Below the pieces are notes generated by a model. The model saw only the letters and a list, made by a program, of their open reading frames with translations. It had not been told where the DNA came from and ran no database searches. The translations under genes and the position numbers were made by a program. A DNA stretch of 13,784 nt from Holophagaceae bacterium UBA706 (GTDB lineage: Bacteria > Acidobacteriota > Holophagae > Holophagales > Holophagaceae): positions 1,457-15,240 of the forward strand of contig DBME01000315.1 of assembly GCA_002298155.1 (NCBI GenBank). The letters are read 5' to 3'. Within the stretch, counting starts at the first letter, position 1. Every line of letters starts with the position of its first letter. This document shows positions 1,125 to 13,784 of this stretch, in pieces.

Positions 1125-1144
1125 GAAGTACGACCTATCCAGGT

Positions 1145-1173
1145 GTATCGTCCATCCCGGCTCGGGGTTGAAA
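1145..1173 (-). promoter_or_regulatory. Possible sigma-70-like promoter for the receiver/PAS gene
   Basis: On the minus strand TTTCAA (1173-1168) is separated by 17 nt from CGATAC (1150-1145), about 20 nt upstream of the ATG at 1124. Spacing is ideal but both hexamers are imperfect, so this is a candidate only. The 1125-1225 gap must also hold the promoter of the divergent receiver-HDOD gene; CATATA and TAGATA words there could serve, but no clear pair was found. Confidence 0.22.
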
Positions 1174-1225
1174 TTCATGCCCATATACCAGCCTACGCTA
1201 GATACAGTAGACGCCAGGGAGCGCC

Positions 1226-2431
1226 ATGGCCGCGAAAACCCGGATTCTCTTCGTCGACGATGAACCATTGGTTCTCCAGGGCTTCCAGCGGCTCCTGCGG
1301 AACATGCGGAGCGTCTGGGACATGGTTTTCGTGGACAGCGCCTTCAAGGGCCTGGAGGCCCTGGCCGAGGCCCCCTTCGACGTGGTGGTCGCCGACATGC
1401 GCATGCCGGGCATGGACGGGGCGGAATTCCTGAATCGCGTCATGCGGGAGCATCCCACCACCATCCGCATCGTCCTGTCGGGCCAGGCCGACTCCGACCT
1501 CCTCCTCAAGGTCGAGGGCGCCGCCCACCAGTTCCTTTCCAAACCCTGCGACCCGGAGATCCTGCGTTCGGTGATCCTCGCCGCCACGGACATCGGGGGC
1601 CGCATCCGCAGCGACGAGGTCCGCAAGGTCCTGGGCGGCATCGCGCATCTGCCGGTGATTCCCGCCGTCTACCAGGAGCTGGTGGTCATGGTGGAGGCGG
1701 AGGCGACCACCGTGGAGGACCTTGGCCGCGTGGTGCAGCGGGATCCGGGCATGACCGCCAATATCCTGAAGCTCGTCAATTCCGCCTATTTCGGCCTCCG
1801 GCAGCGCGTGTCGGACCCCTCCGAGGCCGTTTCCTTCCTGGGGGTGGAGACCCTCAAGTCCCTGGCCCTGGTCCACGGGATCTTCCAGCAGGTGGCGGGA
1901 TTCCCCACCTGGTTCAACGGCGGCCACCTGTGGCGGCACAGCCTGGAGACCGCCACCGTGGCGCGGGATATCGCCCGTTCCGAGGGGCTGGGCCCCGCGG
2001 TGGAGGCGGACTGCTTCACCGGGGGCCTCCTGCACGACGTGGGCCTGCTGATCCTGGCCTCGGGGCTCCGGGAGGACTACCGCCAGGTGTACGAAACGCT
2101 CCGTGCCGATCCCGGGGACGTGCCCGAGGCCGAACTGCGGATCCTGGGCGTGCACCACGGGGAGGTGGGCGCGCATGTCCTGGGCCTGTGGGGCCTCCCG
2201 GTCTCCGTGGTGGAATCCGTGGCCCGCCACCACCATCCGCCCGCCGACGCGGGCCTGTGCCCCGCACTGGTGGTCTATGCGGCGGAGTTCCTCTCGTCGG
2301 TGCAGGGGGACCGGAAGGTCTTCGGGCTGTCCCGGGAGGAGGAAGTGACGATACCGCCGGTCCTGGCACCCTGGGCGGGGCGTTGGGGACGGATCATGGA
2401 GAAGGTGCAGGATGCGGGCGGACCCAGTTAG
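1226..2431 (+). CDS. Response regulator with HDOD output domain
   Basis: This is a 401-residue two-domain signalling protein. The N-terminal receiver has Asp11/Asp12 (ILFVDDEP), phospho-acceptor Asp57 (VVVADMRMPGMDG), Ser85 (VLSG) and Lys106 (LSKPCDP). From about residue 138 an HDOD domain follows, recognised by the HLPVIPAVYQEL entry, the DPGMTANILKLVNSAYFG helix pair, SFLGVETLKSLAL, GLLHDVGLLIL, and the late HHGEVGAHVLGLWGLPVSV ... HHHPP block. HDOD domains are HD-related helical domains, usually without proven phosphohydrolase activity, and often act in signalling or regulation; the target cannot be inferred here. The ATG at 1226 has AGGGA a few bases upstream. The stop overlaps the convergent response-regulator gene by 4 nt. 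No membrane segment is seen, so it should be cytoplasmic. Confidence 0.93.
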   Translation: MAAKTRILFVDDEPLVLQGFQRLLRNMRSVWDMVFVDSAFKGLEALAEAPFDVVVADMRMPGMDGAEFLNRVMREHPTTIRIVLSGQADSDLLLKVEGAAHQFLSKPCDPEILRSVILAATDIGGRIRSDEVRKVLGGIAHLPVIPAVYQELVVMVEAEATTVEDLGRVVQRDPGMTANILKLVNSAYFGLRQRVSDPSEAVSFLGVETLKSLALVHGIFQQVAGFPTWFNGGHLWRHSLETATVARDIARSEGLGPAVEADCFTGGLLHDVGLLILASGLREDYRQVYETLRADPGDVPEAELRILGVHHGEVGAHVLGLWGLPVSVVESVARHHHPPADAGLCPALVVYAAEFLSSVQGDRKVFGLSREEEVTIPPVLAPWAGRWGRIMEKVQDAGGPS

Positions 2432-3069
2432 CTAGGCAGCTTGACACGAAACCACCAGCTTCTGGAGGTGCTCGGCCGAAGCCAGGATGTGCTTCCAGGG
2501 GGAGGGGTCCGCGGGCTCCATGGCAAGCGCATCTCCGCCTGGAGGAGGATGCCGCCGATGGGGTTCTTGAGGTCATGGAGGAGGAAGGCCTCGAGCTTCT
2601 CCCGCATTTCACGCGTCCGCAGGATGAGTTCGTTCTGGGCCTGGACGGTGGCTACGCTCACCTGCAGGTCGGCCACGAGGCCCCGGATGCGGATGAGGGC
2701 CTTGACCCGGAGCAGGAGTTCCTCCGTGCGAACCGGCTTGGTGAGGAAATCGTCGGCCCCGCATTCCATGGCTCGCGCGTAGAGTTCGCCCTCCTGCGAA
2801 CCCGTCAGGATGAGCACCGGCGTCTTGGCCCAGCCCGGCAGGGCCTGGAGCCTGCGGCACGTTTCAAGTCCGTCCATGCCTGGCATCACCAGGTCCAGGA
2901 TCACGAGGTCCGCGGTGCTGTCCGCGGCGAAGGACAGAGCGGCCGGGCCGTCGTTCACGCAGTGGGCCAGGTAGCCGGCGTGCTCCAGCTGGCGTTTCAG
3001 CGACAGGCACACAGCGCGGTCATCATCCACGATGAGGACGGTTTCCCTAGAACCCCATTCGGTCGACAT
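2428..3069 (-). CDS. Response regulator fused to a frameshifted, truncated HisKA stub
   Basis: The frame as it stands gives 213 residues. The receiver (about 10-128) is intact: VLIVDDD acidic pocket, Asp59 (VILDLVMPGMDG), Thr89 (ILTG) and Lys111 (LTKPV). A coiled-coil-like linker (about 130-160) leads into a histidine-kinase dimerisation helix with His165 (FLLHDLKNPIGGILLQAEMR). After residue 182 (near 2523) the frame turns into Pro/Ser/Arg/Trp-rich residues. A one-base shift instead restores sensible protein, MEPADPSPWKHILASAEHLQ then KLVVSCQAA and a TAG at 2434-2432, which looks like the second HisKA helix. Even so the protein ends there, with no HATPase domain. The gene may be a decayed receiver-kinase, a sequencing error on a natural short form, or a working receiver with a dead tail. 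The ATG at 3069 has AAAGGA upstream. It is convergent with the HDOD gene and divergent from the Gcr-family gene. Confidence 0.8.
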   Translation of the reverse strand: MSTEWGSRETVLIVDDDRAVCLSLKRQLEHAGYLAHCVNDGPAALSFAADSTADLVILDLVMPGMDGLETCRRLQALPGWAKTPVLILTGSQEGELYARAMECGADDFLTKPVRTEELLLRVKALIRIRGLVADLQVSVATVQAQNELILRTREMREKLEAFLLHDLKNPIGGILLQAEMRLPWSPRTPPPGSTSWLRPSTSRSWWFRVKLPS

Positions 3070-3151
3070 GGCTGTCCTTTGGTTTTCCCAACATCATGGC
3101 ATGACTGGACCGGCGATGTTTCCATGCCATCCTGTCGGCCACGGAGGGCGC

Positions 3152-5011
3152 ATGGGTTCCATCCTGCTGAACAAGGTCCTCGCCGCCGAGGCGCCCGACG
3201 AGGCCTGGTTCGAGGGAGTGCTCCGGTGGGTCCTGGATGCCGATCCCGAGGGAGGCGCCCACGCTCCCCGGTGCCGGCACCTGCAGGAGCTGGAGGAACA
3301 GCTCCAGGTCCATCCCCGGGGCCCGGAATGGCGGGCCCGGATCCAGGCCGTGTGGCGCCACACCAGCGCCGTGGGCCTCCTTGCCGACGCGGGCCTGCCC
3401 CGGCACGGGGCCTTCCTCCGCGAAGCGCTGGAACTCCTCGTGGACCGTATCGTCCCCAGCCTCGATGCCGAGAACGACCTTTCGGCCCTCCTCCACCGCC
3501 TGGAACTGACGGAGCGGGATGCCGACTGGCTGGAGAGCCTCCCCTGCGCCACCTCCCTGTGGGAGGAGCTGCTGGCCATCCCCGCCGAGGCGAGGTGGGA
3601 CGCCGTGCAGCTGCTGGCGCACCGCGCCGCGGGGCTGGGCCTCGCCCAGGACATCCTGGCCGTCGGCTCCCGGCACCGGGAACTGGATTCACCCTTCGCG
3701 CGGTTGCCTGAAGCCGTGGCGGCCCTCCGCCAGGGCGAGGATCCCGGATGGGACGGCCTGCTGGAGGCCTGCGCGCAAAGGCTCGCCGCCGCCCTGGATC
3801 ACCTGGAGATCCACGGCATCAGCACCGAGCTGGTCTACCGCCTCGACCTCCTGGAGGCCCACCTGGCCCGCATGTCCCGGCTCGTGGACGTGGAGCGGGG
3901 CAGGGTGGATGGCCGGACCTTCGCCGCCGAAGTCGTGCGTAGCAAGGCCCGGGCCCGCAGCCTGGGGGTTCTGGTGAAGGGTAGCGTCCGCCTCATGGCC
4001 CGCAAGGTCGTGGAGCATACCGGGGCCACCGGCGAGCACTACGTGGCCATGACGCGCGAGGAATGGTCGAGCACCTTCCGCTCCGGAGCCGGGGGCGGCG
4101 CCCTGACCGCCTTCACGGCCCTGCTGAAGTACGCCATCGCCGGCGCCGCCCTGGCCCCCCTCATGGCCGGGTCCGCCTTCGCGGCCAACTACACCCTCAG
4201 CTTCCTGGCCATGCAGTTCGCGGGTTTCACCCTGTCCTCGAAGCAGCCCGCCATGACCGCCGCCAGCCTCGCCGGGGCCCTGGAGGACCGCCATTCCCGC
4301 ACCCGGCTCAAGGAGCTGGTGGCGGGCATCGCCCGGAGCCAGGCCATGGCCACCGCCGGCAACGTCCTGGTGACCCTCCCGGCTACCCTCGCCCTGGCGC
4401 TGCTCTGGCGCTGGCTCGTCGGGCGCCCCTTCGTGGACCCCGCCACCGCCGCCCACAGCCTGCATGGCATGCATCCCTTTCGTTCCTGGACCGTTGTCTT
4501 CGCCATCCTCACCGGTGCCATGCTCTGGTTGGCCAGCCTCGCCGCTGGGTGGGCCGCCAACTGGAGCGCCTTCCGCCGTCTTCCGGAAGCCGTGGCCGCG
4601 CACCGCCGTCTGCGCTACTTCCTGGGCGCCGACGGCGCCGCGTGGCTGGGCGCGCAGGTGGGCCGCCATTTCAGTGGGGCCGTGGGCTATGTGGCCCTGG
4701 GCTTCCTCCTGGGTTTCGTGCCCGTGGCCTTCACCTTCGCGGGCCTGAACGTGGAAGTGCGCCACGTGACCCTCAACGCGGCCTCCCTGGCCCTCTGCGC
4801 CGTCCAGGACGCCCCCCGCTGGGCGGACATCGCCTGGGGTCTGGCAGGGATCCTCGTCATCGGCGCCTGCAATTTCAGCGTCTCGTTCTACCTGTCCCTC
4901 CGGACGGCGATGCGTGCCCGGGGAATCACGGGAAAGGAGCATCTCCTGGTCTGGCTATGGAAGGAATTCCTGCGGGAACCCATGACCTTCCTGGGGCCGC
5001 CGGCGCGATGA
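3152..5011 (+). CDS. Gcr/SpecificRecomb family membrane protein (annotated as site-specific recombinase)
   Basis: This 619-residue protein matches the family called 'site-specific recombinase' after gonococcal Gcr (Pfam SpecificRecomb). The N-terminal half (about 1-290) is soluble and helical with many Leu/Ala/Glu/Arg. The recognisable family core starts near residue 296 (GEHYVAMTREEWSSTFRSGA GGG) and runs through paired membrane helices (about 316-357) into GFTLSSKQPAMTAASLAG. Further hydrophobic segments lie near 403-428, 446-470, 508-530 and 560-585, so the C-terminal half is a multi-pass inner-membrane domain. No catalytic Tyr or Ser recombinase motif is visible, and the recombinase label is historical; the true function is unknown. 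The ATG at 3152 is chosen because GGAGGG lies just upstream. The frame extends 40 codons further, but that stretch overlaps the divergent response-regulator start and does not look coding. Confidence 0.82.
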   Translation: MGSILLNKVLAAEAPDEAWFEGVLRWVLDADPEGGAHAPRCRHLQELEEQLQVHPRGPEWRARIQAVWRHTSAVGLLADAGLPRHGAFLREALELLVDRIVPSLDAENDLSALLHRLELTERDADWLESLPCATSLWEELLAIPAEARWDAVQLLAHRAAGLGLAQDILAVGSRHRELDSPFARLPEAVAALRQGEDPGWDGLLEACAQRLAAALDHLEIHGISTELVYRLDLLEAHLARMSRLVDVERGRVDGRTFAAEVVRSKARARSLGVLVKGSVRLMARKVVEHTGATGEHYVAMTREEWSSTFRSGAGGGALTAFTALLKYAIAGAALAPLMAGSAFAANYTLSFLAMQFAGFTLSSKQPAMTAASLAGALEDRHSRTRLKELVAGIARSQAMATAGNVLVTLPATLALALLWRWLVGRPFVDPATAAHSLHGMHPFRSWTVVFAILTGAMLWLASLAAGWAANWSAFRRLPEAVAAHRRLRYFLGADGAAWLGAQVGRHFSGAVGYVALGFLLGFVPVAFTFAGLNVEVRHVTLNAASLALCAVQDAPRWADIAWGLAGILVIGACNFSVSFYLSLRTAMRARGITGKEHLLVWLWKEFLREPMTFLGPPAR

Positions 5012-5611
5012 AAGGGAAGCTTTCAGGAAATAAGACGATAACGGCATCTGGTATCATCGAGGATGAATTTAGAATTAATTCATTCATTCAGCATCAGATT
5101 ATGCAATCAATTCAGGGTAATACGTGAAAGCTAAGCCACTCGAACAAGCAACCGGTTTCCTCCAACGCCTCGTCTACATTCATTTATTCCTATCTTTTAT
5201 CTTTTCTCAGCGATCTCAGCGCCTCCGCTTTCTCAGCGATTAATTTTTTTTGTTGGTTGTTGTGGCGCCAGTAATTCTTGCGCCGACACACAAATGCAAA
5301 TAATGACTTATCGCGGAGAAGGCTGAGGCGCTGAGGACGCTGAGAAAAGATAACTGAATGATTGAATTCCAATGCGCATCATCCACCCTGAAAGGGTTCT
5401 TGATCTTGAATCTTAAGCAACCAGAAGGTCTTTTATATGTATATAAATAAGAACAAAATTAATATTTTTTAATAAATTCTTACACCCTGATTGAAAATTT
5501 TGATCCCTAGTTTGAAAAACAACTGAAAATTCTGCTTGTTACAACGCCTATTCCCTAGGTCCCTTCCACCCCCCGGGCTAGCATCGACCCGCCCCCTGGA
5601 GGTGGGCATTC
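5012..5611. other. AT-rich intergenic island of 600 bp
   Basis: This gap is conspicuously AT-rich against GC-rich flanks; for example 5461-5520 has 14 G/C in 60 bases. It contains the large inverted repeat described separately, a short palindrome TTATAT-GT-ATAATA-like element (perfect 6-bp arms at 5433-5438 and 5441-5446), and a 5-bp ACCCT/AGGGT hairpin near 5382-5394. No frame in it looks coding: the one 60-codon minus-strand frame simply reads through the inverted repeat. The final part must hold the promoter of the secreted-protein gene, but no convincing -35/-10 pair was found. Confidence 0.7.
5197..5353. repeat. Large imperfect inverted repeat with CTCAGCG-like words
   Basis: The left arm is 5197-5240 and the right arm 5310-5353, each 44 nt, separated by 69 nt. 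By hand alignment 39 of 44 positions pair: a perfect outer 16 bp (ttatcttttctcagcg), two mismatches, a perfect 11 bp (ctcagcgcctc), then 12 of 15. Within an arm CTCAGCG or variants (CTCCGCT, CTCCGCG) recur about every 9-10 nt. The transcript of either strand could fold into a long stem. The 60-codon open frame across it has no family features. From memory, similar CTC(A/T)GCG-rich interspersed repeats occur in many bacterial genomes; copy number in this genome is unknown. Confidence 0.85.
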
Positions 5612-6454
5612 ATGAACCTTCGCTTCCGCATTGCCGCTCTTTCCTGCCTTGGCCTGGTTTTCGCCCCCGCCCTGCTCGCCCAGTCCGGCGCCATGGCCCC
5701 GCCCCCGCTCATGCTGTTCGTGCGCGAGGAGGTGAAGCCGGGCCGGGGCGCCGCCCATGAAGCCACCGAGGCCGCCTGGACCCAGGCGCTCATCAAAGGC
5801 AAATCCGCTGATCACTACCTGGGCATGTCCTCCATGACCGGTCCCTCGGAAGCCTGGTTCATCATGGGCTACCGCAACTACGCCGAGTGGGAGTCCCGCC
5901 AGAACGAGTTCGACAAGAGCCCCATGCTCAAGAAGGAAGTCCAGAAGATCGCCCAGCAGGACGGCGACCTCCTCTCGGGCACCCGCACCTTCCTGGGGGC
6001 CTACCGCCAGGACCTGAGCTTCGGCCCCGACGTGGAGATCGGCAAGATGCGCTACTTCCGCATCCGCATCTTCCGCATCAAGCCCGGCCAGAACAAGGCA
6101 TTCGAAGACGGCGTGAAGGTGGCGCTGGACGCCTACAAGAAGAGCGGCTACCCCGCCTCCTTCGCCTTCTACGAAGTGAGCGCGGGCATGGGGTCGCCCA
6201 GCTTCGTGGTGCTCCGGCCCATGAAGTCCCTGGCGGACATGGACGTGCTGGACACGGCGGACAAGGCCTTCCAGGAGGCCCTGGGCGAGGAGGGGCGCAA
6301 GACCATGCAGAAGGTCTTCGCCGAAACGGTCAACATGGTGGAGAACCAGCTCTTCGCCATCAATCCCAAGCTGAGCTTCCCGGGGCCGGCGACCATCGCC
6401 AGCGATCCGGCCTTCTGGACGCCCAAGCCGGTGAAGGAACCCGCCGCCAAGTGA
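5612..6454 (+). CDS. Secreted protein with two similar ferredoxin-fold-like modules, function unknown
   Basis: This 280-residue protein starts at an ATG with GGAGGTG about 8 nt upstream. Residues 1-23 form a Sec-type signal peptide: basic NLRFR, a hydrophobic core, and likely cleavage after ALLA before QSG. The mature part shows two comparable halves. About 33-100 reads LMLFVREEVKPGRGAAHEA ... GPSEAWFIMGYRNYAEWES, and about 147-215 reads YFRIRIFRIKPGQNKAFEDG ... GSPSFVVLRPMKSLADMD. Each has a beta strand, a KPG turn, a helix carrying an acidic residue, then a Gly-Ser/Pro turn and a strand. This is the pattern of dimeric alpha-beta barrel (ABM-like) proteins, so an internal duplication of that fold is likely. 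No catalytic residues were identified. It stands alone after the AT-rich island and converges with the hydrogenase operon, 6 nt apart, so it need not be related to it. Confidence 0.8.
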   Translation: MNLRFRIAALSCLGLVFAPALLAQSGAMAPPPLMLFVREEVKPGRGAAHEATEAAWTQALIKGKSADHYLGMSSMTGPSEAWFIMGYRNYAEWESRQNEFDKSPMLKKEVQKIAQQDGDLLSGTRTFLGAYRQDLSFGPDVEIGKMRYFRIRIFRIKPGQNKAFEDGVKVALDAYKKSGYPASFAFYEVSAGMGSPSFVVLRPMKSLADMDVLDTADKAFQEALGEEGRKTMQKVFAETVNMVENQLFAINPKLSFPGPATIASDPAFWTPKPVKEPAAK

Positions 6455-6461
6455 GGCGGGT
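6439..6461. terminator. GC-rich hairpin at the convergent gene junction
   Basis: The sequence acccgcc (6439-6445), a 9-nt loop, then ggcgggt (6455-6461) can form a perfect 7-bp stem covering both stop codons of the converging genes. There is no T-tract on either side, so it is at best a weak or factor-assisted bidirectional terminator. Confidence 0.3.
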
Positions 6462-6922
6462 CAACCTGGAAGCTCCTCCATCAGAATGGTATAGGCCGCC
6501 AGCGGCGCGGCCACGGCCAGGGCGGGGCTGAGTTCGGTGGTCATGTCCTGGGGCAGGGCGATGGACAGGGTGTAGAGCACCATGTCCGGGGGTTCCTGCC
6601 CCAGGAGGTAGAAGCTGTCCAGGAGGTCCTTCAGGCCGATGTCGTGGGCCGCGAGGCTGGAGGGGAAGTCGCTGGCGTACTTCGGGACGATGCGCTGGAG
6701 GGTGCCGGGGGGGTTCCCGTCGGCGGTGGCGTCCACCAGGATGATCCGCCGGGCCTCCTGCATGGGTTCCAGCAGCACGAGGCTGCCGGTTCCGCCGTCA
6801 AGGTACTGCACGCCGGGAGGGGCCGGGGATTCCATGAGGGCCCGCACCACATGGACCCCCACCCCCTCGTCGCCCAGGAGCGTATTGCCGATGCCGAGGA
6901 CCAGGATGTCAGGACGGGTCAC
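6461..6922 (-). CDS. hyaD: [NiFe]-hydrogenase maturation endopeptidase
   Basis: This 153-residue protein of the HyaD/HybD/HoxM family removes the C-terminal extension of the hydrogenase large subunit after nickel insertion. The signature GIGNTLLGDEGVG lies at residues 10-22. The three residues equivalent to the nickel-sensing ligands of HybD are present as Glu19, Asp64 (IILVDATADG) and His93 (AAHDIGLKDL). Length is normal for the family. The start is a GTG at 6922-6920, supported by AAGGAG about 7 nt upstream inside the preceding gene; it overlaps the cytochrome b gene by 14 nt, indicating translational coupling as the last gene of the operon. Its substrate is almost certainly the large subunit at 7609-9327, which still carries a 15-residue cleavable tail. 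The symbol follows E. coli naming. Confidence 0.93.
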   Translation of the reverse strand: MTRPDILVLGIGNTLLGDEGVGVHVVRALMESPAPPGVQYLDGGTGSLVLLEPMQEARRIILVDATADGNPPGTLQRIVPKYASDFPSSLAAHDIGLKDLLDSFYLLGQEPPDMVLYTLSIALPQDMTTELSPALAVAAPLAAYTILMEELPG

Positions 6923-7595
6923 GCTTCTCCTTCTCGAACTTCCACCCGCCCACCATGGATGAGGTGGTGCCGCGGCCTTCGATGTAGTCGTGGTAGAAGA
7001 CCAGGTACACGTGGATCAGCGTGAAGACGATGTAGAACCACAGCATCGCATGGTGCCACTGGCGAACGGCCTGATCGCTGCCCATGAGGGGCACCACCCA
7101 CGCGAAGGCCTTGCCGACGAACGAGGAGCTCATGGGGCCGTAGAGGGCGAACCCCGTGGCCACCTGGAAGAGGAAGACGAAGAAGGTGCCGAAGTAGATG
7201 GTGCCCGCCAGGCGGTTGTGCCCCACGTGGATGTGGCCCTTGAGGCGCGTCTGGAAGATGTCGACCTTGAGGACCTCGATGATCTCCTTCAGGGCGTCGC
7301 CCGACGTGGGGATGAACTGCTTCCAGGAGGCGTAGATGTTGCCCACGAAGCCCCAGTAGATGCGGGCCAGGAAGTTGATGAGGAAGATCCACGCCGCGAG
7401 GAAGTGGATGAACCGTACGGTGCCGAACCAGTACTGGAAGGACGCTTCCTGGGCGAACCCCACGTGGATGGGATTGCCGATGATGTAGCCGGTGATGGCC
7501 AGGGCGGTGACGGTGAGGCCGTTGATCCAGTGGAAGGCCCGCACCGGCAGTTCCCAGACGTACACCCGCTTGTAGGTCGCGTTGGTGGCGTGCAT
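6909..7595 (-). CDS. hyaC: Ni/Fe-hydrogenase b-type cytochrome subunit
   Basis: This 228-residue integral membrane protein anchors the hydrogenase and passes electrons from the small subunit to quinone. The N-terminal motif YVWELPVRAFHWIN is characteristic of HyaC/HoxZ. Four hydrophobic segments are seen at about 23-40, 62-84, 129-152 and 183-203. Candidate heme ligands are His22, His64, the His181/His182 pair, His195 and His202. The cytoplasmic-like loop before TM3 carries HIHVGHNRLAG, also a family feature. The ATG at 7595 has GGGAGG upstream and lies 13 nt after the large-subunit stop. The 3' end overlaps the protease gene. Length matches the family and nothing looks broken. Confidence 0.95.
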   Translation of the reverse strand: MHATNATYKRVYVWELPVRAFHWINGLTVTALAITGYIIGNPIHVGFAQEASFQYWFGTVRFIHFLAAWIFLINFLARIYWGFVGNIYASWKQFIPTSGDALKEIIEVLKVDIFQTRLKGHIHVGHNRLAGTIYFGTFFVFLFQVATGFALYGPMSSSFVGKAFAWVVPLMGSDQAVRQWHHAMLWFYIVFTLIHVYLVFYHDYIEGRGTTSSMVGGWKFEKEKRDPS

Positions 7596-7608
7596 GTCCG
7601 CCTCCCGC

Positions 7609-9327
7609 TCAGTTGAACTGGACCTGGTGGATCTGCTTGCCGTCCGGGTCGTAGAGGTGGACGGCGCAGGCCAGGCAGGGATCGAAGGAGTGGATGGTCC
7701 GGAGGATCTCCACCGGCTGGTCCACGTTGGCCACGGGGGTGCCGATCAGGGCGCTCTCGTACGAGGAGCGCTGGCCCTTGGTGTCGCGGGGGGAGGCGTT
7801 CCAGGTGCTGGGGACCACCAGCTGGTAGTTGTCGATGAGGCGGTCCTTGATCCTGATCCAGTGGGCCAGGGCGCCCCGGGGGGCCTCGGTCATGCCCACG
7901 CCTTCGGCTTCGGCGGGCCAGGTCTCCGGGTCCCAGTGGTAGCGGGTGTGGGTGCGGGTCTCGCCGTTCTTGATGTTGGCGATGAGGTCGTCGAAGAACC
8001 CCTTCATCCAGTGCGCCACCACCTGGGTCTCCACGCCCCGGGCGGCGGTGCGGCCCAGGGTCGAGAAGAGGGCGGTGACGGGGACGTCGAGCTTCTTCAG
8101 CACCCCGCCCACCAGCTCCTTCACGTCGGTGTTGCCCTTGGCGTAGGCCACCAGCATGCGGGCCAGGGGGCCCACCTCCATGGGGTGCTCCTTCCAGCGC
8201 GGCGTCTTGAGCCAGGAGTACTTGCCGTCCACGTCCAGCTGCTCGTAGGGGGGCTTGGGCCCGGTGTAGTTGAACTCGGTCTCGCCCTTGAAGGGATGGA
8301 GGCCCGTGCCGTCCCCGGCGCCGTACTTGTACCAGGAGTGCGAGATGTATTCCTTGATCTCCTGCTCGTCCTTGCCGTTGACCTCGTGGACCTCGTTGAG
8401 GTTGCGGCCCAGGATGGCGCCCCGGGGCAGCAGGAACGAGGCCGTGTCCCGGTAGCCGCGAGTGGGCAGGTCGCCGTAGGCCAGGTAGTTCTCCAGGCCG
8501 CCGCCGATGGCCGCCCAGTCCTTGTAGAAGCCCGCCACCGCGAGGAGGTCGGGCACGTAGACCTGCTCCACGAAGGTGATGGCGTCCTTGATGAGGCTGG
8601 CCACGTGGTTGAGGCGCTCGGTGTTGATGGCGTTCACTTCCTCGGTGTTGAACGAGCAGGGCACCCCGCCGACGAGGTAATTGGGGTGGGGATTCTTGCC
8701 GCCGAAGATGGCGTGGATCTTGACGATGTCCTTCTGCCATTCCAGCGCGTCGAGGTAGTGCGACACGGCGATGAGGTTCACTTCGGGCGGGAGCTTGTAG
8801 GCCTTGTGGCCCCAGTAGCCGTTGGCGAAGATCCCCAGCTGGCCGCTCTCCACGTACTTCTTGAGGCGCTGCTGCACGGCCGCGAAGTGGCCGGGGTTGG
8901 ACTTGGGCCAGGGCGAGAGGGACTGGGCGATCTTAGAGGCTTCCACGGGGTTGGCCTTGAGCATGCTCACCACGTCCACCCAGTCCAGGGCGTGGAGGTG
9001 GTAGAAGTGCACGACGTGGTCCTGGACGTACTGGGCGCAGAACATGAGGTTGCGCACCAGGTCGGCGTTCCTGGGCACCTCGATGCCCAGGGCGTCCTCC
9101 ACGCTGCGGCAGCTGGCCAGGGCGTGGACGGTGGTGCAGACGCCGCAGACGCGCTCGGTGAAGGCCCAGGCGTCCCGGGGGTCGCGGCCCTTGAGGATCT
9201 TCTCGATGCCGCGGACCATGGTGCCGGCGCTGAAGGCGTCCTTCACCACACCGTTCTCCACGACGGCTTCGATGCGGAGGTGGCCCTCGATGCGGGTGAC
9301 GGGGTCGATGACGATGCGCTTGTTCAT
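7609..9327 (-). CDS. hyaB: [NiFe]-hydrogenase large (catalytic) subunit precursor, group 1
   Basis: This 572-residue subunit holds the Ni-Fe active site that oxidises H2, probably on the periplasmic face. Both nickel-ligand motifs are intact: ERVCGVCTTVHALAS (Cys61, Cys64, His68) and DPCLACAVH (Cys551, Cys554, His557). Exactly 15 residues follow His557 (LYDPDGKQIHQVQFN), the extension expected to be cut off by the maturation protease encoded in the same operon. Other family marks are the N-terminal RIVIDPVTRIEGHLRIE and FGGKNPHPNYLVGGVPC. The ATG at 9327-9325 is chosen over the GTG one codon earlier because it forms a TGATG stop-start overlap with the small subunit. The gene looks fully intact, in contrast to its partner. 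Export would normally rely on the Tat signal of the small subunit, which is missing here. Confidence 0.97.
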   Translation of the reverse strand: MNKRIVIDPVTRIEGHLRIEAVVENGVVKDAFSAGTMVRGIEKILKGRDPRDAWAFTERVCGVCTTVHALASCRSVEDALGIEVPRNADLVRNLMFCAQYVQDHVVHFYHLHALDWVDVVSMLKANPVEASKIAQSLSPWPKSNPGHFAAVQQRLKKYVESGQLGIFANGYWGHKAYKLPPEVNLIAVSHYLDALEWQKDIVKIHAIFGGKNPHPNYLVGGVPCSFNTEEVNAINTERLNHVASLIKDAITFVEQVYVPDLLAVAGFYKDWAAIGGGLENYLAYGDLPTRGYRDTASFLLPRGAILGRNLNEVHEVNGKDEQEIKEYISHSWYKYGAGDGTGLHPFKGETEFNYTGPKPPYEQLDVDGKYSWLKTPRWKEHPMEVGPLARMLVAYAKGNTDVKELVGGVLKKLDVPVTALFSTLGRTAARGVETQVVAHWMKGFFDDLIANIKNGETRTHTRYHWDPETWPAEAEGVGMTEAPRGALAHWIRIKDRLIDNYQLVVPSTWNASPRDTKGQRSSYESALIGTPVANVDQPVEILRTIHSFDPCLACAVHLYDPDGKQIHQVQFN

Positions 9328-10211
9328 CACTGGGCCTCTTCGTCTTCAGTCTGGCCTGCGGGCGAGGATTCCTTCACGGTCTCCGCGATCAGGGGACGCT
9401 TGCGTATGTTGGTGGTGACCGCGTGGGCCGCGACCCCCACCGCCACGCCGATGCCCAGCGCCGCGCCGACCGTGTCGGCCGTGGACTCGATGCCGAAGCC
9501 CGGGAAGGAGGGCAGGTGGCGGTAGAAGGGCCCGTTGTCCCAGAAGCCGTTCTCCGAGCATCCGATGCAGCCGTGGCCCGACTGGATTGGATAGCTGGTG
9601 GACTGGTTCCACTTGGTCACCGAGCAGGCGTTGTAGGTCACGGGACCCCGGCAGCCCATGCGGAACAGGCAGTAGCCCTTGCGCGCGCCGTCGTCGTCCC
9701 AGGCATCCACGAAGAGCCCGGCGTCGTAGTAGGGGCGGCGGTAGCAGGTGTCGTGGACGCGCCGGCCATAGAATTCACGGGGACGGCCCTGGGCGTCCAG
9801 CTCGGGCCCGCGGCCGAACATGAGCAGGTGGACCACCACGGCGGCCATGACGTCGGCGATGGGCGGGCAGCCCGGGACGTTGATGACCGGCTTGCCGATG
9901 AGCTTGCTGATGGGGGTGGCGTGGGTGGGGTTGGGCTTGGCGGCCTGCACGCAACCAAAGGACGCGCAGTTGCCCCAGGCGATGACCGCCGCGGCGCCCT
10001 TGGCGGCCTCCTTGAGGATGTCCAGGGCGCTGCGCCCGCCGATGCAGCAGTAGACGCCGTCCTCGCCCGTGGGCACCGAGCCCTCCACCAGGAGGATGTA
10101 CTTGCCGGCGTAGTTCTTCATGGTGTCGTCGCGGCACTTCTCGGCGGCGGCGCCGGCGGCGGCGGGAAGGAGCAGGAGGGCGGCGAGGAGGGCGAGTCCG
10201 GTGGTCTTCAC
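9327..10211 (-). CDS. hyaA: [NiFe]-hydrogenase small subunit with replaced N-terminus (truncated or chimeric)
   Basis: From Glu24 on this is a normal HyaA-type small subunit: KNYAGKYILLVEG, then C82ASFGC87VQAAKPNPT and VPGC115PP for the proximal cluster, His153/Cys156/Cys181/Cys187 for the distal cluster, and Cys196/Cys215/Cys218 (GHGCIGC) for the medial cluster. Cys87 matches the extra cysteine of oxygen-tolerant group 1d enzymes. The C-terminus has the membrane helix (TADTVGAALGIGVAVGVAAH) and a polar tail. The usual first 90 or so residues (twin-arginine signal and the Cys-x-x-Cys half of the proximal site) are absent. Instead the frame reads MKTTGLALLAALLLLPAAAG, a Sec-type signal peptide, from a GTG at 10211. 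The frame stays open upstream to 10460 but looks non-coding. As written the protein should not bind the proximal cluster. It is either a chimeric assembly or a recombined, inactive gene. Confidence 0.85.
   Translation of the reverse strand: MKTTGLALLAALLLLPAAAGAAAEKCRDDTMKNYAGKYILLVEGSVPTGEDGVYCCIGGRSALDILKEAAKGAAAVIAWGNCASFGCVQAAKPNPTHATPISKLIGKPVINVPGCPPIADVMAAVVVHLLMFGRGPELDAQGRPREFYGRRVHDTCYRRPYYDAGLFVDAWDDDGARKGYCLFRMGCRGPVTYNACSVTKWNQSTSYPIQSGHGCIGCSENGFWDNGPFYRHLPSFPGFGIESTADTVGAALGIGVAVGVAAHAVTTNIRKRPLIAETVKESSPAGQTEDEEAQ
10140..10166. other. GCC-repeat junction between signal peptide and small-subunit body
   Basis: On the minus strand the codons for P-A-A-A-G-A-A-A-E form an almost pure GCC run (three GCC, GGC, three GCC) flanked by CCC and GAG. 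To its left the sequence is hydrogenase small subunit; to its right it encodes a signal-peptide hydrophobic core. AAAG-A-A-A-E-K-C is also what a normal small subunit has at this point, so the run can be shared by both parents, a typical place for a microhomology or misassembly join. Confidence 0.55.
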
Positions 10212-10671
10212 GTGGGGTCTCCGTGGCCGGGCGCGACGCTGGGTCCGTCCTGGCGCGCGGAATCTGCCAGATGGACCCGGGGCGGACAAGGCTCCCGCGC
10301 CCTCCGGCGGCGCAGCCGCGCCGTGTCCTGCTCCCCACGGTCCGGGCATCCCACCCGCGCCCACTGTTCCAGGCGGGGCGGGACGCTTGCTCTCGATCAA
10401 GCGGACGCCGCAACACCCCGTCCATCCTGGCCGCTCCGTTTCACGCGCCCGCGACACCACCGCTGGCGGCGCGTTGCCCCGGGAAGCGCATGTCCATCGT
10501 CTGCCACCGCCTCGCCTACGGGGAGACCACCATCCCGGAGCAGGTCCTCGACACCACCATCACCACGGTGCTGGTGAACTGGGTCTTCGCCGAAGGTCTC
10601 CCGGCGAGCGGGCGCGGCTGGCCCGGGCCTTCGCCGGGACCGGGGACCGGCCGGGATCCCAGGCGGGCCCG
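10212..10671. other. Gap of 460 bp between small-subunit start and glgA stop, mostly non-coding
   Basis: Between the GTG of the small-subunit frame and the glgA stop the DNA is very GC-rich. Frames through 10212-10480 give Pro/Arg/Gly-rich translations without family features. GGAG lies about 8 nt upstream of the GTG at 10211. No convincing sigma-70 or sigma-54 promoter or T-tract terminator was found, although TTGATC near 10395 (minus strand) is a weak -35 candidate. The right part contains a possible small plus-strand ORF, listed separately. Confidence 0.5.
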
Positions 10672-10693
10672 CTACCCCGCCAGCCGCTGGTAG
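10490..10693 (+). CDS. Possible small ORF, unknown (67 codons)
   Basis: An ATG at 10490 preceded by GGGAAG opens a 67-codon frame. The first 40 or so codons have nearly all G/C at the third position with mixed second positions, as in real genes of this background, and read MSIVCHRLAYGETTIPEQVL followed by DTTITTVLVNWVFAEGLP. The last 25 residues are Pro/Arg/Gly-rich and look non-coding, and the 3' end overlaps glgA by 22 nt in convergent orientation. It could be a small gene, the 5' remnant of a longer one, or chance. No family is recognised. A minus-strand frame here also has high GC3 but is broken by a stop. Confidence 0.25.
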   Translation: MSIVCHRLAYGETTIPEQVLDTTITTVLVNWVFAEGLPASGRGWPGPSPGPGTGRDPRRARYPASRW

Positions 10694-12108
10694 AGCGCCT
10701 CGTAGCTGCGGGCGCTCCGGTCCCAGCTGAAGTCCTGCGCCATGCCGCGGTCCACGATCCCGCGCCACGCTGCCTTGTCCCGGAAGGCGGCCAGGGCCCG
10801 GGAGACGGCGCCCCAGAGCGCCACCTCGGTGTACTCGCGGAACTTGAAGCCGGTCCCCTCGCCCGGGGCGCCGCTGTCCTCGACCGTGTCCTCCAGGCCG
10901 CCCACCGCCCGCACCACCGGCACCGTGCCGTAGCGGAGCGAGTAGAGCTGGTTCAGGCCGCAGGGCTCGAAGCGGGAGGGGACGATGACGAAGTCGGAGC
11001 CGGCGTAGAGCCGGTGGGCCAGCGCGTTGTCGAAGTGGAGGAAGGCCTTGAACCGCTCCGGGTGGCGCTGGGCCAGCGAGGCGAAGTGGCGCTCCAGCTC
11101 CTTGTCGCCGGAGGCGAGCAGGATGACCTGGAGGTGCCAGTCGAGCGCCCGCTCCAGCGCGCCGGCCAGCACGTCGAAGCCCTTCTGATCCACCAGCCGC
11201 CCGATGGCGCAGAAGAGCGGGACGCCGGGGTCGGCCGGGAGGCCGGCCTCGCGCTGGAGCGCCAGCTTGACCGCCTGCTTGCCGGCGTCGTCGCCGGGGC
11301 CGAAGCGCTGCGGCAGGAGCGCGTCGGTGGCCGGGTTCCACTCGTCCTCGTCGATCCCGTTCAGGATGCCGAAGAGGTCGCCGGCGCGCGAGCGCAGCTC
11401 GCCGTCCAGCCCGCAGCCGAGCTCGCCGCCCTGGATCTCGCGGGCGTACGTGGGGCTGACGGTGGAGAGGACGTTGGAGTGGCGGATGGCCGCCTTCATG
11501 AGGTTGAGCGAGCCGAAGTGCTCGAACTCGCCGGGGTGGTAGTGCTCCGGCCCGAGCCCGGTGATGAACAGGGCGCCGCCGTCGGTGACCCCCTGGTACA
11601 TCAGGTTGTGGATGGTGTAGACGGTCGCCGCCCCGTGCAGCGGCTGGCCCCACTCCACCGTGTTCACGTAGACCGGCACCAGCGCCGTCTGCCAGTCGTT
11701 GGCGTGGATGGCGTCGGGGATGAAGTTGAGCCGCTTGCAGAGCTGGAGCGCGCCGCGGGAGAGGAAGGTGAACCGCTCCAGGTTGTCGGCGTAGCCGTCC
11801 TCGGGCGGGCCGTAGAGGTACCTGCGGTCGAAGTACTGGTTGTACTCTAGGAGGTAGACCGGCACGTCGGACCGCGGCAGGCGGCCGAGCCGCACCGCCC
11901 CGCGGGCGGTGCCCCACCACATGGGCACGTCCAGCGCCCCGTCCAGCTTCTCCAGCGCCTCCCAGTCGATGCCGGCGTAGAGCGGCATCACCACCCGCAC
12001 GTCGTGCCCGCGCTTCCGCAGGGCCTTGGGCAGCGCCCCCGCCACGTCGGCCAGGCCGCCGCTCTTCGCGAACGGCGCCACCTCCGAGGAGACGATCAGG
12101 ATCTTCAT
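10672..12108 (-). CDS. glgA: Glycogen synthase (ADP-glucose, GT5)
   Basis: This 478-residue protein has the normal length for bacterial GlgA, which adds glucose from ADP-glucose to growing alpha-1,4-glucan in the cytoplasm. The glucosyl-donor loop KSGGLADVAGALP has Lys15. HANDWQ (about 135-140) and TIHNLMYQG (His167) mark the N-terminal Rossmann domain. GRLVDQKGFDVL (Arg304, Lys309) and SRFEPCGLNQLYSLRYGT (Glu381) mark the C-terminal GT-B domain. It starts at an ATG one base after the TGA of the GH57 gene, so the two are probably translated together. The DNA is richer in GC than the hydrogenase genes. The gene looks complete and functional. Confidence 0.97.
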   Translation of the reverse strand: MKILIVSSEVAPFAKSGGLADVAGALPKALRKRGHDVRVVMPLYAGIDWEALEKLDGALDVPMWWGTARGAVRLGRLPRSDVPVYLLEYNQYFDRRYLYGPPEDGYADNLERFTFLSRGALQLCKRLNFIPDAIHANDWQTALVPVYVNTVEWGQPLHGAATVYTIHNLMYQGVTDGGALFITGLGPEHYHPGEFEHFGSLNLMKAAIRHSNVLSTVSPTYAREIQGGELGCGLDGELRSRAGDLFGILNGIDEDEWNPATDALLPQRFGPGDDAGKQAVKLALQREAGLPADPGVPLFCAIGRLVDQKGFDVLAGALERALDWHLQVILLASGDKELERHFASLAQRHPERFKAFLHFDNALAHRLYAGSDFVIVPSRFEPCGLNQLYSLRYGTVPVVRAVGGLEDTVEDSGAPGEGTGFKFREYTEVALWGAVSRALAAFRDKAAWRGIVDRGMAQDFSWDRSARSYEALYQRLAG

Positions 12109-12109
12109 C

Positions 12110-13693
12110 TCAGGTCGCGTAGAGCCGGTAGTCGACGTGCGGGAAGATGTTGTCCTTCGCCTCGAGGTCGGCCAGGTGGTCCTCGTCGATCCGGCCCGCC
12201 TTGATCTCGTCGTAGAGGCGGTTGAAGCGGACCGTGTGCTCGTTGAAGCGGCGGGTGGCGTAGGGGACCGTCGAGCCGGTGGTCATGATGAAGGGCCAGT
12301 CGGACGACTGGGCCAGCATCAGCTCCCGGGCGGCCTGGTTGAGCGCCCGGCGGGCGACCCCGTCGGCGTCCGGGCGGCTGCGGGCCAGCTCCACCATCCG
12401 CTCGCCGGCCACGTGGACGTGGCGCCAGGTCCAGGCGTTGGTCTCGTTGCACCAGTAGGCGCCGTACCCCTTGGCGCCCCAGGACGAGAGGCTGGGGGTG
12501 GCCACCTGGTTGGTCGGGTGGCGGTCCAGGTAGTCGCCGGGGGTGATGGTCTCCACGGTCTGCTGGTCGAAGTGGAGCTGCCGCAGCACGTCGTTGATGA
12601 AGAGCGGCCCCTCGAACCACCAGTGGCCGAACAGCTCGGCGTCGTAGGGGGCGATCAGGATGGGCGGCCGATCCATGCCGGCGGCCAGGGCCTGGGCCTG
12701 CTTCTCCCGGTTGCCGCGGAAGTGGCTGGCGTGCATGCCGACCCGGGCGCGCGCGGCGTCGGGGTCGTAGGGCCACTTGTCGTGCAGCTTGTCGTGGGTG
12801 ATGGCGTGGTACTTGATGCCCGTGTACATCCGGAAGCCCTCCGGGTGCACGTACGGGCCGATGTAGTCCATCGGCAGGTCGAAGCCGATGTCCCGGTAGA
12901 AGTCGCGGTAGAGCGGATCGCCCGGGTAGCCCTCCTTGGCGCTCCAGACCTGCTCCGAAGACTCCGGGTCGCGGCCGAAGGCGGCCACGCCGGTGGGGCA
13001 GTAGAGCGGGGCGTAGACGCCGCGGACGGCCGGCCGGTCGGCGTTCTGCAGCGCGTGGGTGTCGGCCAGGAAGTAGCGGATGCCGGCCTCGCGCAGCAGC
13101 TCGTCGCAGCCGGGCGCGTAGCCGCACTCGGCCAGCCACATGCCGCGCGGCCGCCGCCCGAAGTGCTCCTCGTACTGGTCGGCGGCGGTGTGGACCTGGG
13201 CCCGCATGGCGGCCCAGTTCCGGTCCATCAGCGGGAAGAAGGCGTGGGTGGCGTTGGAGGTGATCACCTCCACCCGCCCGGCCTCCTGCAGCCCGCGGAA
13301 GGCGTGGACCAGGTTCCCCTCGTGGCAGCGCCAGGTGTGGCGCAGCGACTGGAACCGGTCCCAGTACATCCGCGCCAGCTTGTGGTAGTGCGGCTCCGGC
13401 TGCGTCCGGTCCAGCTCCTTGCCCGACAGCTCGATCAGCTCGTCCAGGTGGCGGGCGTACCGCTCCTTGAGCAGGTCGTCCGTCAGCATGGCGATGAGCG
13501 GGGCCGAGAGCGAGACGGTGATCCGGTACGGGATCCCGTCGGACACCAGCCCCTCCAGCACCTGCACCAGCGGCAGGTAGGTGCCGGTGATGGCCTCGAA
13601 GAGCCACCGCTCCTCCATCACCGTCGGGTCCTCCGGGTGACGGACGAAGGGGAGGTGTGCGTGGAGCACCAGCGAGAGGTACCCGGTGGCCAT
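12110..13693 (-). CDS. GH57 family alpha-glucan branching enzyme-like protein
   Basis: This 527-residue protein carries the GH57 motifs in order: LVLHAHLPFVRHP (about 8-20), SNATHAFFPLMD (about 146-157), GMWLAECGYAPG with the likely nucleophile Glu189, and IAPYDAELFGHWWFEGP with the likely acid Asp351. The C-terminal part (about 420-510) is helical, as in the GH57 branching enzymes TK1436 and TT1467, which cut an alpha-1,4 chain and rejoin it as alpha-1,6. Placement directly before glgA supports a branching role in glycogen synthesis; 4-alpha-glucanotransferase is the main alternative. The start is taken at the ATG 13693-13691 because a GGGGGGGAA tract lies 6 nt upstream; a GTG two codons earlier abuts that tract. 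It follows the upstream gene's stop by 2 nt. Confidence 0.92.
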   Translation of the reverse strand: MATGYLSLVLHAHLPFVRHPEDPTVMEERWLFEAITGTYLPLVQVLEGLVSDGIPYRITVSLSAPLIAMLTDDLLKERYARHLDELIELSGKELDRTQPEPHYHKLARMYWDRFQSLRHTWRCHEGNLVHAFRGLQEAGRVEVITSNATHAFFPLMDRNWAAMRAQVHTAADQYEEHFGRRPRGMWLAECGYAPGCDELLREAGIRYFLADTHALQNADRPAVRGVYAPLYCPTGVAAFGRDPESSEQVWSAKEGYPGDPLYRDFYRDIGFDLPMDYIGPYVHPEGFRMYTGIKYHAITHDKLHDKWPYDPDAARARVGMHASHFRGNREKQAQALAAGMDRPPILIAPYDAELFGHWWFEGPLFINDVLRQLHFDQQTVETITPGDYLDRHPTNQVATPSLSSWGAKGYGAYWCNETNAWTWRHVHVAGERMVELARSRPDADGVARRALNQAARELMLAQSSDWPFIMTTGSTVPYATRRFNEHTVRFNRLYDEIKAGRIDEDHLADLEAKDNIFPHVDYRLYAT

Positions 13694-13695
13694 GG

Positions 13696-13784
13696 TCACT
13701 TCCCCCCCAGCCTGGGCTCGCTGCCGCCCAGCCGGCGCTCGCTCGCCCCGCCCAGCCGCTGCTCGCTGGCACCCGCCAGCCGCC
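13696..13784 (-). CDS. C-terminal tail of an unknown gene with RLGGASE repeats (partial)
   Basis: The frame is open from the right edge to a TGA at 13698-13696 and encodes 28 residues in repeated units: RLAGASEQ, RLGGASER, RLGGSEP, RLGGK. The stop lies 2 nt before the GH57 ATG, and the end of the frame forms that gene's ribosome site, so the three genes are likely one operon. The DNA unit varies at synonymous and non-synonymous positions while the protein pattern is kept, which favours this frame as the coding one. The main domain is outside the window. A short basic/acidic Gly-Ala-Ser repeat tail suggests a disordered C-terminus. Confidence 0.6.
   Translation of the reverse strand, partial: RLAGASEQRLGGASERRLGGSEPRLGGK
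13699..13782 (-). repeat. Imperfect 24-nt tandem repeat
   Basis: Read on the minus strand, units begin with (C/A)GGCTGG at 13782, 13758, 13734 and 13713, with lengths 24, 24, 21 and 15 nt. The third unit has lost one codon. It lies inside the tail of the partial gene and may continue beyond the window edge. Confidence 0.75.

What the first reader, a model, noticed from the sequence alone, without database searches (positions are those of the whole stretch)
9327..10211. Hydrogenase small subunit with its N-terminal region replaced by a generic signal peptide
The large subunit, cytochrome and protease look intact, and the small subunit is normal from AAAEKC onward. However, it lacks the twin-arginine signal and the N-terminal Cys-x-x-Cys of the proximal cluster. 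In their place is a well-formed Sec-type signal peptide starting at a GTG with a GGAG upstream. Small subunits of this family need both missing elements for co-export with the large subunit and for electron transfer. The protein as encoded should therefore be inactive, or the sequence is a chimera.
Basis: partly seen in the sequence, partly recalled or inferred. Interest (0 to 1): 0.7.

Follow-up and report, generated by a model that had tools for sequence, protein, structure and literature searches.

The report
Chimeric contig cuts a hydrogenase gene
The odd start of this hydrogenase gene is almost certainly an assembly error that glued DNA of another bacterium onto an ordinary Geothrix hydrogenase gene, so it is not a new kind of protein.

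Summary
In detail: from 10163 down to 9327 (minus strand) lies a normal [NiFe]-hydrogenase small subunit without its Tat signal and first proximal-cluster cysteines, and a Sec-like signal peptide (GTG at 10211) precedes it in frame. The cause is almost certainly a chimeric contig. Window 20-10163 is collinear, in three blocks, with a Geothrix genome, and similarity stops at 10163/10164. Protein P0001, from a different contig, is identical over all 278 residues below the join and carries the expected 95-residue Tat/CTCC N-terminus, as do 8 of 8 relatives. The missing part was not found in the incomplete bin. The other arm (signal peptide, glgA, GH57 branching enzyme) is foreign: GH57 is absent from 5 of 5 other genomes of the genus, and the named protein relatives are Anaeromyxobacteraceae or deltaproteobacterial. 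Its glgA looks like a mosaic too, suggesting a second join. The junction is a GC-rich 24-base alanine-coding stretch. No reads were available, so a real recombinant is not formally excluded.

The parts
9327..10163 (-). Genuine 3' part (278 codons + stop) of a Geothrix [NiFe]-hydrogenase small subunit gene, Hyd-1/HoxK-like; first 95 codons missing
10140..10163 (-). Junction stretch GCCGCCGCCGGCGCCGCCGCCGAG (Ala/Gly-coding); homology to Geothrix ends at its upstream edge, 10163/10164
10164..10211 (-). Foreign start of an exported protein: GTG start and Sec-like hydrophobic stretch VKTTGLALLAALLLLP, fused in frame
   Evidence: Sec assignment by eye, no predictor was run
10672..12108 (-). Foreign glycogen synthase gene glgA; residues 1 to about 380 resemble one Anaeromyxobacteraceae-type glgA lineage, residues from about 391 another
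10906..10977 (-). Probable second join inside glgA, in the conserved block coding for SRFEPCGLNQLYSLRYGTVPVVRA (residues 378-401; the exact point is not resolved)
12110..13699 (-). Foreign GH57 1,4-alpha-glucan branching enzyme gene, absent from 5 of 5 other genomes of the genus
7609..9330 (-). Hydrogenase large subunit gene, normal
6909..7595 (-). Hydrogenase b-type cytochrome subunit gene, normal
6461..6922 (-). Hydrogenase maturation protease gene, normal

Best explanation
The contig is a metagenomic assembly chimera. An ordinary Geothrix hydrogenase operon (small subunit, large subunit, cytochrome b, protease) is joined, inside the small subunit gene, to DNA of an unrelated bacterium, probably a relative of Anaeromyxobacteraceae. 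The join lies in a GC-rich alanine-coding stretch (10140-10163) that reads as the end of a Sec signal peptide (PAAAGAAAE) on one side and as the AAAGAAAEKC segment of the hydrogenase on the other. The frame happens to stay open, so the contig seems to encode a Sec-targeted, N-terminally truncated hydrogenase. In the real organism the gene should have 373 codons with a Tat signal and the ECTCC cluster motif. Shown: the abrupt loss of homology, the identical intact homologue on another contig, the foreign affinity of the arm. Inferred: that the assembler, and not a recombination in a cell, made the join, and that the shared stretch was the cause.
For: (1) Homology to relatives ends sharply at 10163: below it 71-81 of 90 bases match in five relatives, above it only 26-31 of 80. 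(2) P0001, on a 12,398-bp contig of source 'jgi', is identical over 278 of 278 residues and has SRREF...ECTCCSESF upstream. (3) Residues 1-95 of P0001 are matched in 8 of 8 relatives' loci (68-88%) and only at chance level in contig C336. Of the best 120 relatives listed (7,323 passed E 0.001), 118 carry RRx[FY] and C[TS]CC[ST]E; the two without (P0033, P0040) are N-terminally short, from contigs of at most 1,597 and 922 bp; none of the 120 holds LPAAAG or KTTGLAL of the window's signal peptide. (4) Window 20-10163 is collinear with G004 (Geothrix sp. 21YS21S-2, judged by equal contig length) in the pieces 20-2325, 2454-5002 and 5576-10163. (5) In the other five genomes of the genus the right arm has only glgA-core DNA matches (65-75% over 169-760 bp) and shorter ones, and its GH57 protein has no match in 5 of 5. 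The bin has another glgA-like stretch, on C373 (68%). (6) Organism-named rows: GH57 3 of 120 (2 Anaeromyxobacter or Anaeromyxobacteraceae, 1 Deltaproteobacteria); glgA 7 of 119 besides the window's own (6 and 1). (7) GC3 is 0.99 in both right-arm genes against 0.83-0.97 in nine left-part genes. (8) glgA is itself mosaic: residues 1-380 are 67-86% identical to 119 listed relatives but residues 391-478 only 41-56%, while Anaeromyxobacter soli and terrae glgA show 50% and then 66-67%. (9) The right arm runs to the contig end, so no second flank shows an insertion.
Against: No reads or coverage were available. Tetranucleotide correlation does not separate the right arm from Geothrix: 0.61-0.70 with five sets from Geothrix and its family, 0.43-0.66 with three Anaeromyxobacter loci, 0.57 with the Nitrospirae locus. 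The donor is not pinned down: among four genomes searched the best DNA match was a Nitrospirae-labelled MAG (77% GH57, 70% glgA), above three Anaeromyxobacter genomes (66-69%). No donor copy of the signal-peptide gene was found, so the overlap on the donor side is not measured. An exact 18-mer from the junction occurs in no locus other than copies of this contig (6 of 169 loci, all of C336), and the 24-mer once in the window. The missing N-terminus was not found on another contig of the bin. The members of the P0001 cluster (7) were not seen one by one.
Confidence: 0.95

Rival explanations
1. A real recombination in this Geothrix population: foreign DNA with glgA and GH57 inserted into the small subunit gene, leaving a truncated, probably inactive hydrogenase gene.
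For: The frame is open, the join is seamless, and no intact copy of the N-terminus was found in the bin. Tetranucleotide composition of the arm does not stand out as foreign.
Against: An identical protein with the normal N-terminus exists on another contig; the arm runs off the contig end with no second flank; the arm shows a second lineage switch within glgA; the 278 residues below the join are identical to P0001, with no sign of decay.
Confidence: 0.03
2. A functional new variant: a Sec-exported small subunit without the first proximal-cluster cysteines, adapted to another role.
For: Open frame with a plausible start and a GGAG motif.
Against: None of the 120 listed relatives holds the signal peptide's two test substrings, and 118 of 120 keep the RRx[FY] and C[TS]CC[ST]E motifs. 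Small subunits of this kind are co-exported folded with the large subunit through Tat (established knowledge, recalled).
Confidence: 0.01
3. The join is correct but a frameshift or wrong start hides the normal N-terminus in another frame just upstream.
For: Sequencing errors and wrong starts are common (general knowledge).
Against: Residues 1-95 of P0001 have only two chance-level matches (E 7.3 and 7.5) in six frames of the whole contig, and the upstream DNA has no homology to the Geothrix upstream DNA.
Confidence: 0.005

Closest known systems
Geothrix group-1 [NiFe]-hydrogenase small subunit (TIGR00391; E. coli Hyd-1 HyaA / Cupriavidus HoxK type)
   Same: 278 of 278 residues identical to P0001. 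P0001 matches HoxK 5mdj (residues 2-307 of 328) and Hyd-1 3uqy (1-325 of 335); the printed alignment with 5mdj shows ECTCCSESF and WG-x-CAS-x-GC.
   Different: The first 95 residues are missing from this contig.
Chimeric contigs of short-read metagenome assembly
   Same: Two unrelated genomes joined at a short GC-rich stretch, in an assembly of 469 contigs. A review says that assembly graphs linked by shared k-mers, chiefly of related species but also through sequencing errors, can yield chimeric contigs (PMC7299287, passages seen).
   Different: Here the partners look unrelated, not close species; reads to prove the join false were not available, and the assembler is unknown.
Anaeromyxobacteraceae glgA and GH57 branching enzyme genes
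   Same: GH57 is 93% identical to unnamed P0121 and 86% to an Anaeromyxobacter sp. MAG protein, P0124.
   Different: The glgA is mosaic and the donor species is not identified.

Membership tests
[NiFe]-hydrogenase small subunit, group 1, as encoded on this contig | Twin-arginine (RRx[FY]) signal at the N-terminus | tested here: not met
   The ORF starts VKTTGLALLAALLLLP and the N-terminus of P0001 is not on contig C336; present in 118 of 120 listed relatives
[NiFe]-hydrogenase small subunit, group 1, as encoded on this contig | N-terminal proximal-cluster cysteines (ECTCC) | tested here: not met
   C63, C65 and C66 of P0001 lie in the missing part
[NiFe]-hydrogenase small subunit, group 1, as encoded on this contig | Remaining body and C-terminal cluster domain | tested here: met
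   PF01058 profile 36-128 of 128, PF14720 1-79 of 80, TIGR00391 92-358 of 365
Hyd-1/HoxK-type O2-tolerant small subunit (inferred intact gene, P0001) | Two extra cysteines, at the positions of C19 and C120 | tested here: met
   P0001 aligned to HoxK 5mdj shows ECTCCSESF and WGNCASFGC; the roles of C19 and C120 in C. necator MBH are from passages of PMC10583674. O2 tolerance itself was not tested
Assembly chimera | Abrupt switch of affinity at one point | tested here: met
   tetranucleotide composition did not show it
Assembly chimera | Intact, identical version of the gene on another contig | tested here: met
   at the protein level
Assembly chimera | Shared sequence at the join in both parents | tested here: inconclusive
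   P0001 keeps the same peptide AAAGAAAEKC; the donor's copy was not found
Assembly chimera | Read depth or read pairs break at the join | not testable with these tools
   No reads available

The most novel reading that the evidence does not exclude
A real in-frame fusion in one Geothrix strain put a Sec signal peptide on a hydrogenase small subunit without its first cluster cysteines, and the product is made and exported.
Probability: 0.02. Interest if true: 0.5.

Novelty: not a real feature. Interest (0 to 1): 0.06.

Why it matters
It shows that an apparently new protein architecture can come from a contig join in an assembly with an estimated contamination of only 0.98%. The GH57 gene and this glgA should not be credited to this Geothrix genome, nor should a defective hydrogenase. 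If the fusion were real it would challenge the need for Tat export and for the proximal cluster.

Tried and rejected
Tetranucleotide correlation to assign the right arm: not decisive at 3.6 kb. One search was mis-aimed: its query was an inner part of the small subunit gene and not the N-terminus; searches replaced it. A search for the donor of the signal peptide and for the 67-residue plus-strand stretch beside it found nothing convincing outside the window's own contig. In one search a 24-base junction pattern with up to 3 mismatches matched 14 times in 6 of 7 genomes, one of them the window itself; the reversed control pattern matched 4 times. The two matches in Anaeromyxobacter genomes (3 mismatches each) were not followed up. 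GC3 values printed came from longest ORFs that by their look were wrong frames, so they were not used. One search printed a long tblastx table that was cut; only its blastn rows and the printed DNA were used. A hidden normal start in another frame was rejected. One search printed canonical N-termini for 7 of 8 relatives (L010 lacked the marker peptides used to pick ORFs); one search then showed them for 8 of 8. No terminator or sigma-70 promoter was found in 10100-10700, and no Rfam family in the window. Paper searches: 3 papers, listing seen, none read; 30 papers, 10 listed, one seen in passages; 8 listed, one seen in passages. No structure prediction was run because the sequence evidence was enough.

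Full report
What is in the sequence. On the minus strand the ORF 10211..9327 begins with GTG, with GGAG 7 nt upstream, and encodes the 16 residues VKTTGLALLAALLLLP followed by 278 residues, from AAAGAAAEKC on, of a [NiFe]-hydrogenase small subunit. TIGR00391 matches only from profile position 92 and PF01058 only from position 36; PF14720, the C-terminal domain, is matched at 1-79 of 80. The large subunit, b-type cytochrome and maturation protease genes that follow match their families. The small correction is that the missing motif is Cys-x-Cys-Cys.

Where the window comes from. It is bases 1457-15240 of contig C336 (15,240 bp) in an assembly of 469 contigs, 81.53% complete with 0.98% contamination. 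One same-genus genome, G004, has a contig of 5,248,135 bp.

The left part is ordinary Geothrix. Window 7609-10139 matches 3 of the 5 other genomes of the genus over its full length at 88-89% DNA identity; G003 and G005 give only short matches. Window 20-10163 runs collinear with G004 in three blocks, 20-2325, 2454-5002 and 5576-10163, the last at 84.5%. Similarity stops at 10163 in G001, G002, G004 and G009 alike and in the locus of G019 (L009). In the more distant L007, L008 and L010 the DNA alignment stops a little below it. In five relatives 71-81 of the 90 bases below the join match, against 26-31 of the 80 bases above it.

The intact gene exists. P0001 (373 aa, longest contig 12,398 bp, source 'jgi') is identical to the window over all 278 residues below the join, and has a 95-residue N-terminus with SRREF and ECTCCSES in place of the window's 16 residues. 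Residues 1-95 of P0001 are found in 8 of 8 relatives' loci (68-88% identity), and in contig C336 only as two chance-level matches. Of the 120 best relatives listed, out of 7,323 that passed, 118 carry RRx[FY] and C[TS]CC[ST]E. The two that do not are short proteins of 296 and 264 aa from contigs of at most 1,597 and 922 bp, and none of the 120 holds either of two substrings of the window's signal peptide. A search of the genus with P0001 gave near-full-length matches in G001, G002 and G004, none in G003 and G005, and in G000 only residues 93-373, on C336. DNA searches of the bin with the upstream stretches of G004 and G002 did not find the missing N-terminus: none of 36 matches fell in that part, and one of 7, a 31-bp match on C291 at E 0.0098, taken as chance. 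The bin is incomplete, so the true start may lie on a contig that was not binned.

The right part is foreign. Bases 10164-13784 carry glgA and a GH57 branching enzyme gene. In the other five genomes of the genus their DNA finds only the conserved core of glgA (65-75% over 169-760 bp) and shorter pieces, and the bin itself has another such glgA stretch on C373. The GH57 protein has no match in 5 of 5 other genomes of the genus. Its best database relative is 93% identical and unnamed. Of the 120 GH57 rows 3 bear an organism name (2 Anaeromyxobacter or Anaeromyxobacteraceae, 1 Deltaproteobacteria), and of the 119 glgA rows besides the window's own 7 do (6 and 1). Several GH57 and glgA rows share the same longest contig length (8,887, 11,521 and 15,523, for example), which suggests that the pair is adjacent in those relatives (inference). 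GC3 is 0.99 in both genes against 0.83-0.97 in nine left-part genes. Against this, tetranucleotide correlations do not separate the arm from Geothrix, and among four genomes searched directly a Nitrospirae-labelled MAG matched the arm better (77% and 70%) than three Anaeromyxobacter genomes (66-69%). In all four of these genomes the glgA and GH57 matches lie on different contigs. The donor is therefore a non-Geothrix bacterium, probably related to Anaeromyxobacteraceae, but not identified.

A second join is likely. Residues 1-380 of the glgA product are 67-86% identical (median 70) to the 119 listed relatives, but residues 391-478 only 41-56% (median 49). Anaeromyxobacter soli and terrae glgA show the reverse: 50% and then 66-67% (40-residue bins). 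The 119 were picked as best whole-length matches, which favours the longer part, but the two lineages' distinct tails are plain in the alignment. The switch lies in the conserved SRFEPCGLNQLYSLRYGTVPVVRA block, window 10906-10977. Gene conversion between two glgA genes in one cell could also give this, so it is support and not proof. GH57 shows no such switch (84-100% to P0121 in all nine bins).

How the join probably arose. The stretch 10140-10163 is a GC-rich Ala/Gly-coding repeat that can serve both as the end of a signal peptide and as the AAAGAAAE of the hydrogenase; P0001 has the same peptide there. A review states that assembly graphs linked by shared k-mers can produce chimeric contigs, mainly with related species but also through sequencing errors (PMC7299287, passages seen). 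A shared stretch of about 24 bases would suffice for small k-mers (general knowledge). Near-matches to a 24-base pattern over the junction (3 mismatches) occur in 6 of 7 genomes searched, 14 in all with the window's own exact one, against 4 for the reversed control. No donor copy was identified, and an exact 18-mer of the junction was found only in copies of C336 among 169 loci. The overlap on the donor side is therefore inferred.

What the real enzyme is. The intact P0001 matches the Cupriavidus HoxK and E. coli Hyd-1 small subunits over nearly their whole solved length, with cysteines at the places of the six-cysteine proximal cluster described for C. necator MBH (PMC10583674, passages seen). 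By sequence it is an ordinary uptake hydrogenase of the O2-tolerant type; its activity is untested. A paper search for Geothrix with hydrogenase and small subunit listed 3 papers, which were not read.

Verdict. The feature is an assembly chimera with 95% confidence. A real recombinant is possible at a few per cent because no reads could be examined.

Noticed in passing
window 5197-5353: A long AT-flanked palindrome (55-nt arms, 82% complementary, RNA fold z-score -11.65) with related copies in several other contigs of the bin (C278, C253, C29, C6, C125, C124, C58). No Rfam match in the window. It may be a dispersed palindromic repeat or miniature mobile element of this Geothrix genome.
   Followed up: partly
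window 10672-12108 (-): The glgA gene is a mosaic of two glgA lineages with a switch between residues 378 and 401: a probable second assembly join, or else gene conversion.
   Followed up: partly
window 10490-10690 (+): A 67-residue stretch of a plus-strand ORF (MSIVCHRLAYGETTIPEQVLD...) has no match in 7 of 8 genomes searched; the only match is the window's own contig. It may be a non-coding frame.
   Followed up: partly
L034 and G044 (Nitrospirae bacterium CG2_30_70_394): This MAG carries glgA and GH57 genes closer to the foreign arm (70% and 77% DNA) than those of three Anaeromyxobacter genomes, which suggests transfer or a mixed bin.
   Followed up: no
window 3032-5011 (+): Protein of the PF10136 'Site-specific recombinase' family; its gene has DNA matches of 71-78% in 5 of 5 other genomes of the genus.
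   Followed up: no
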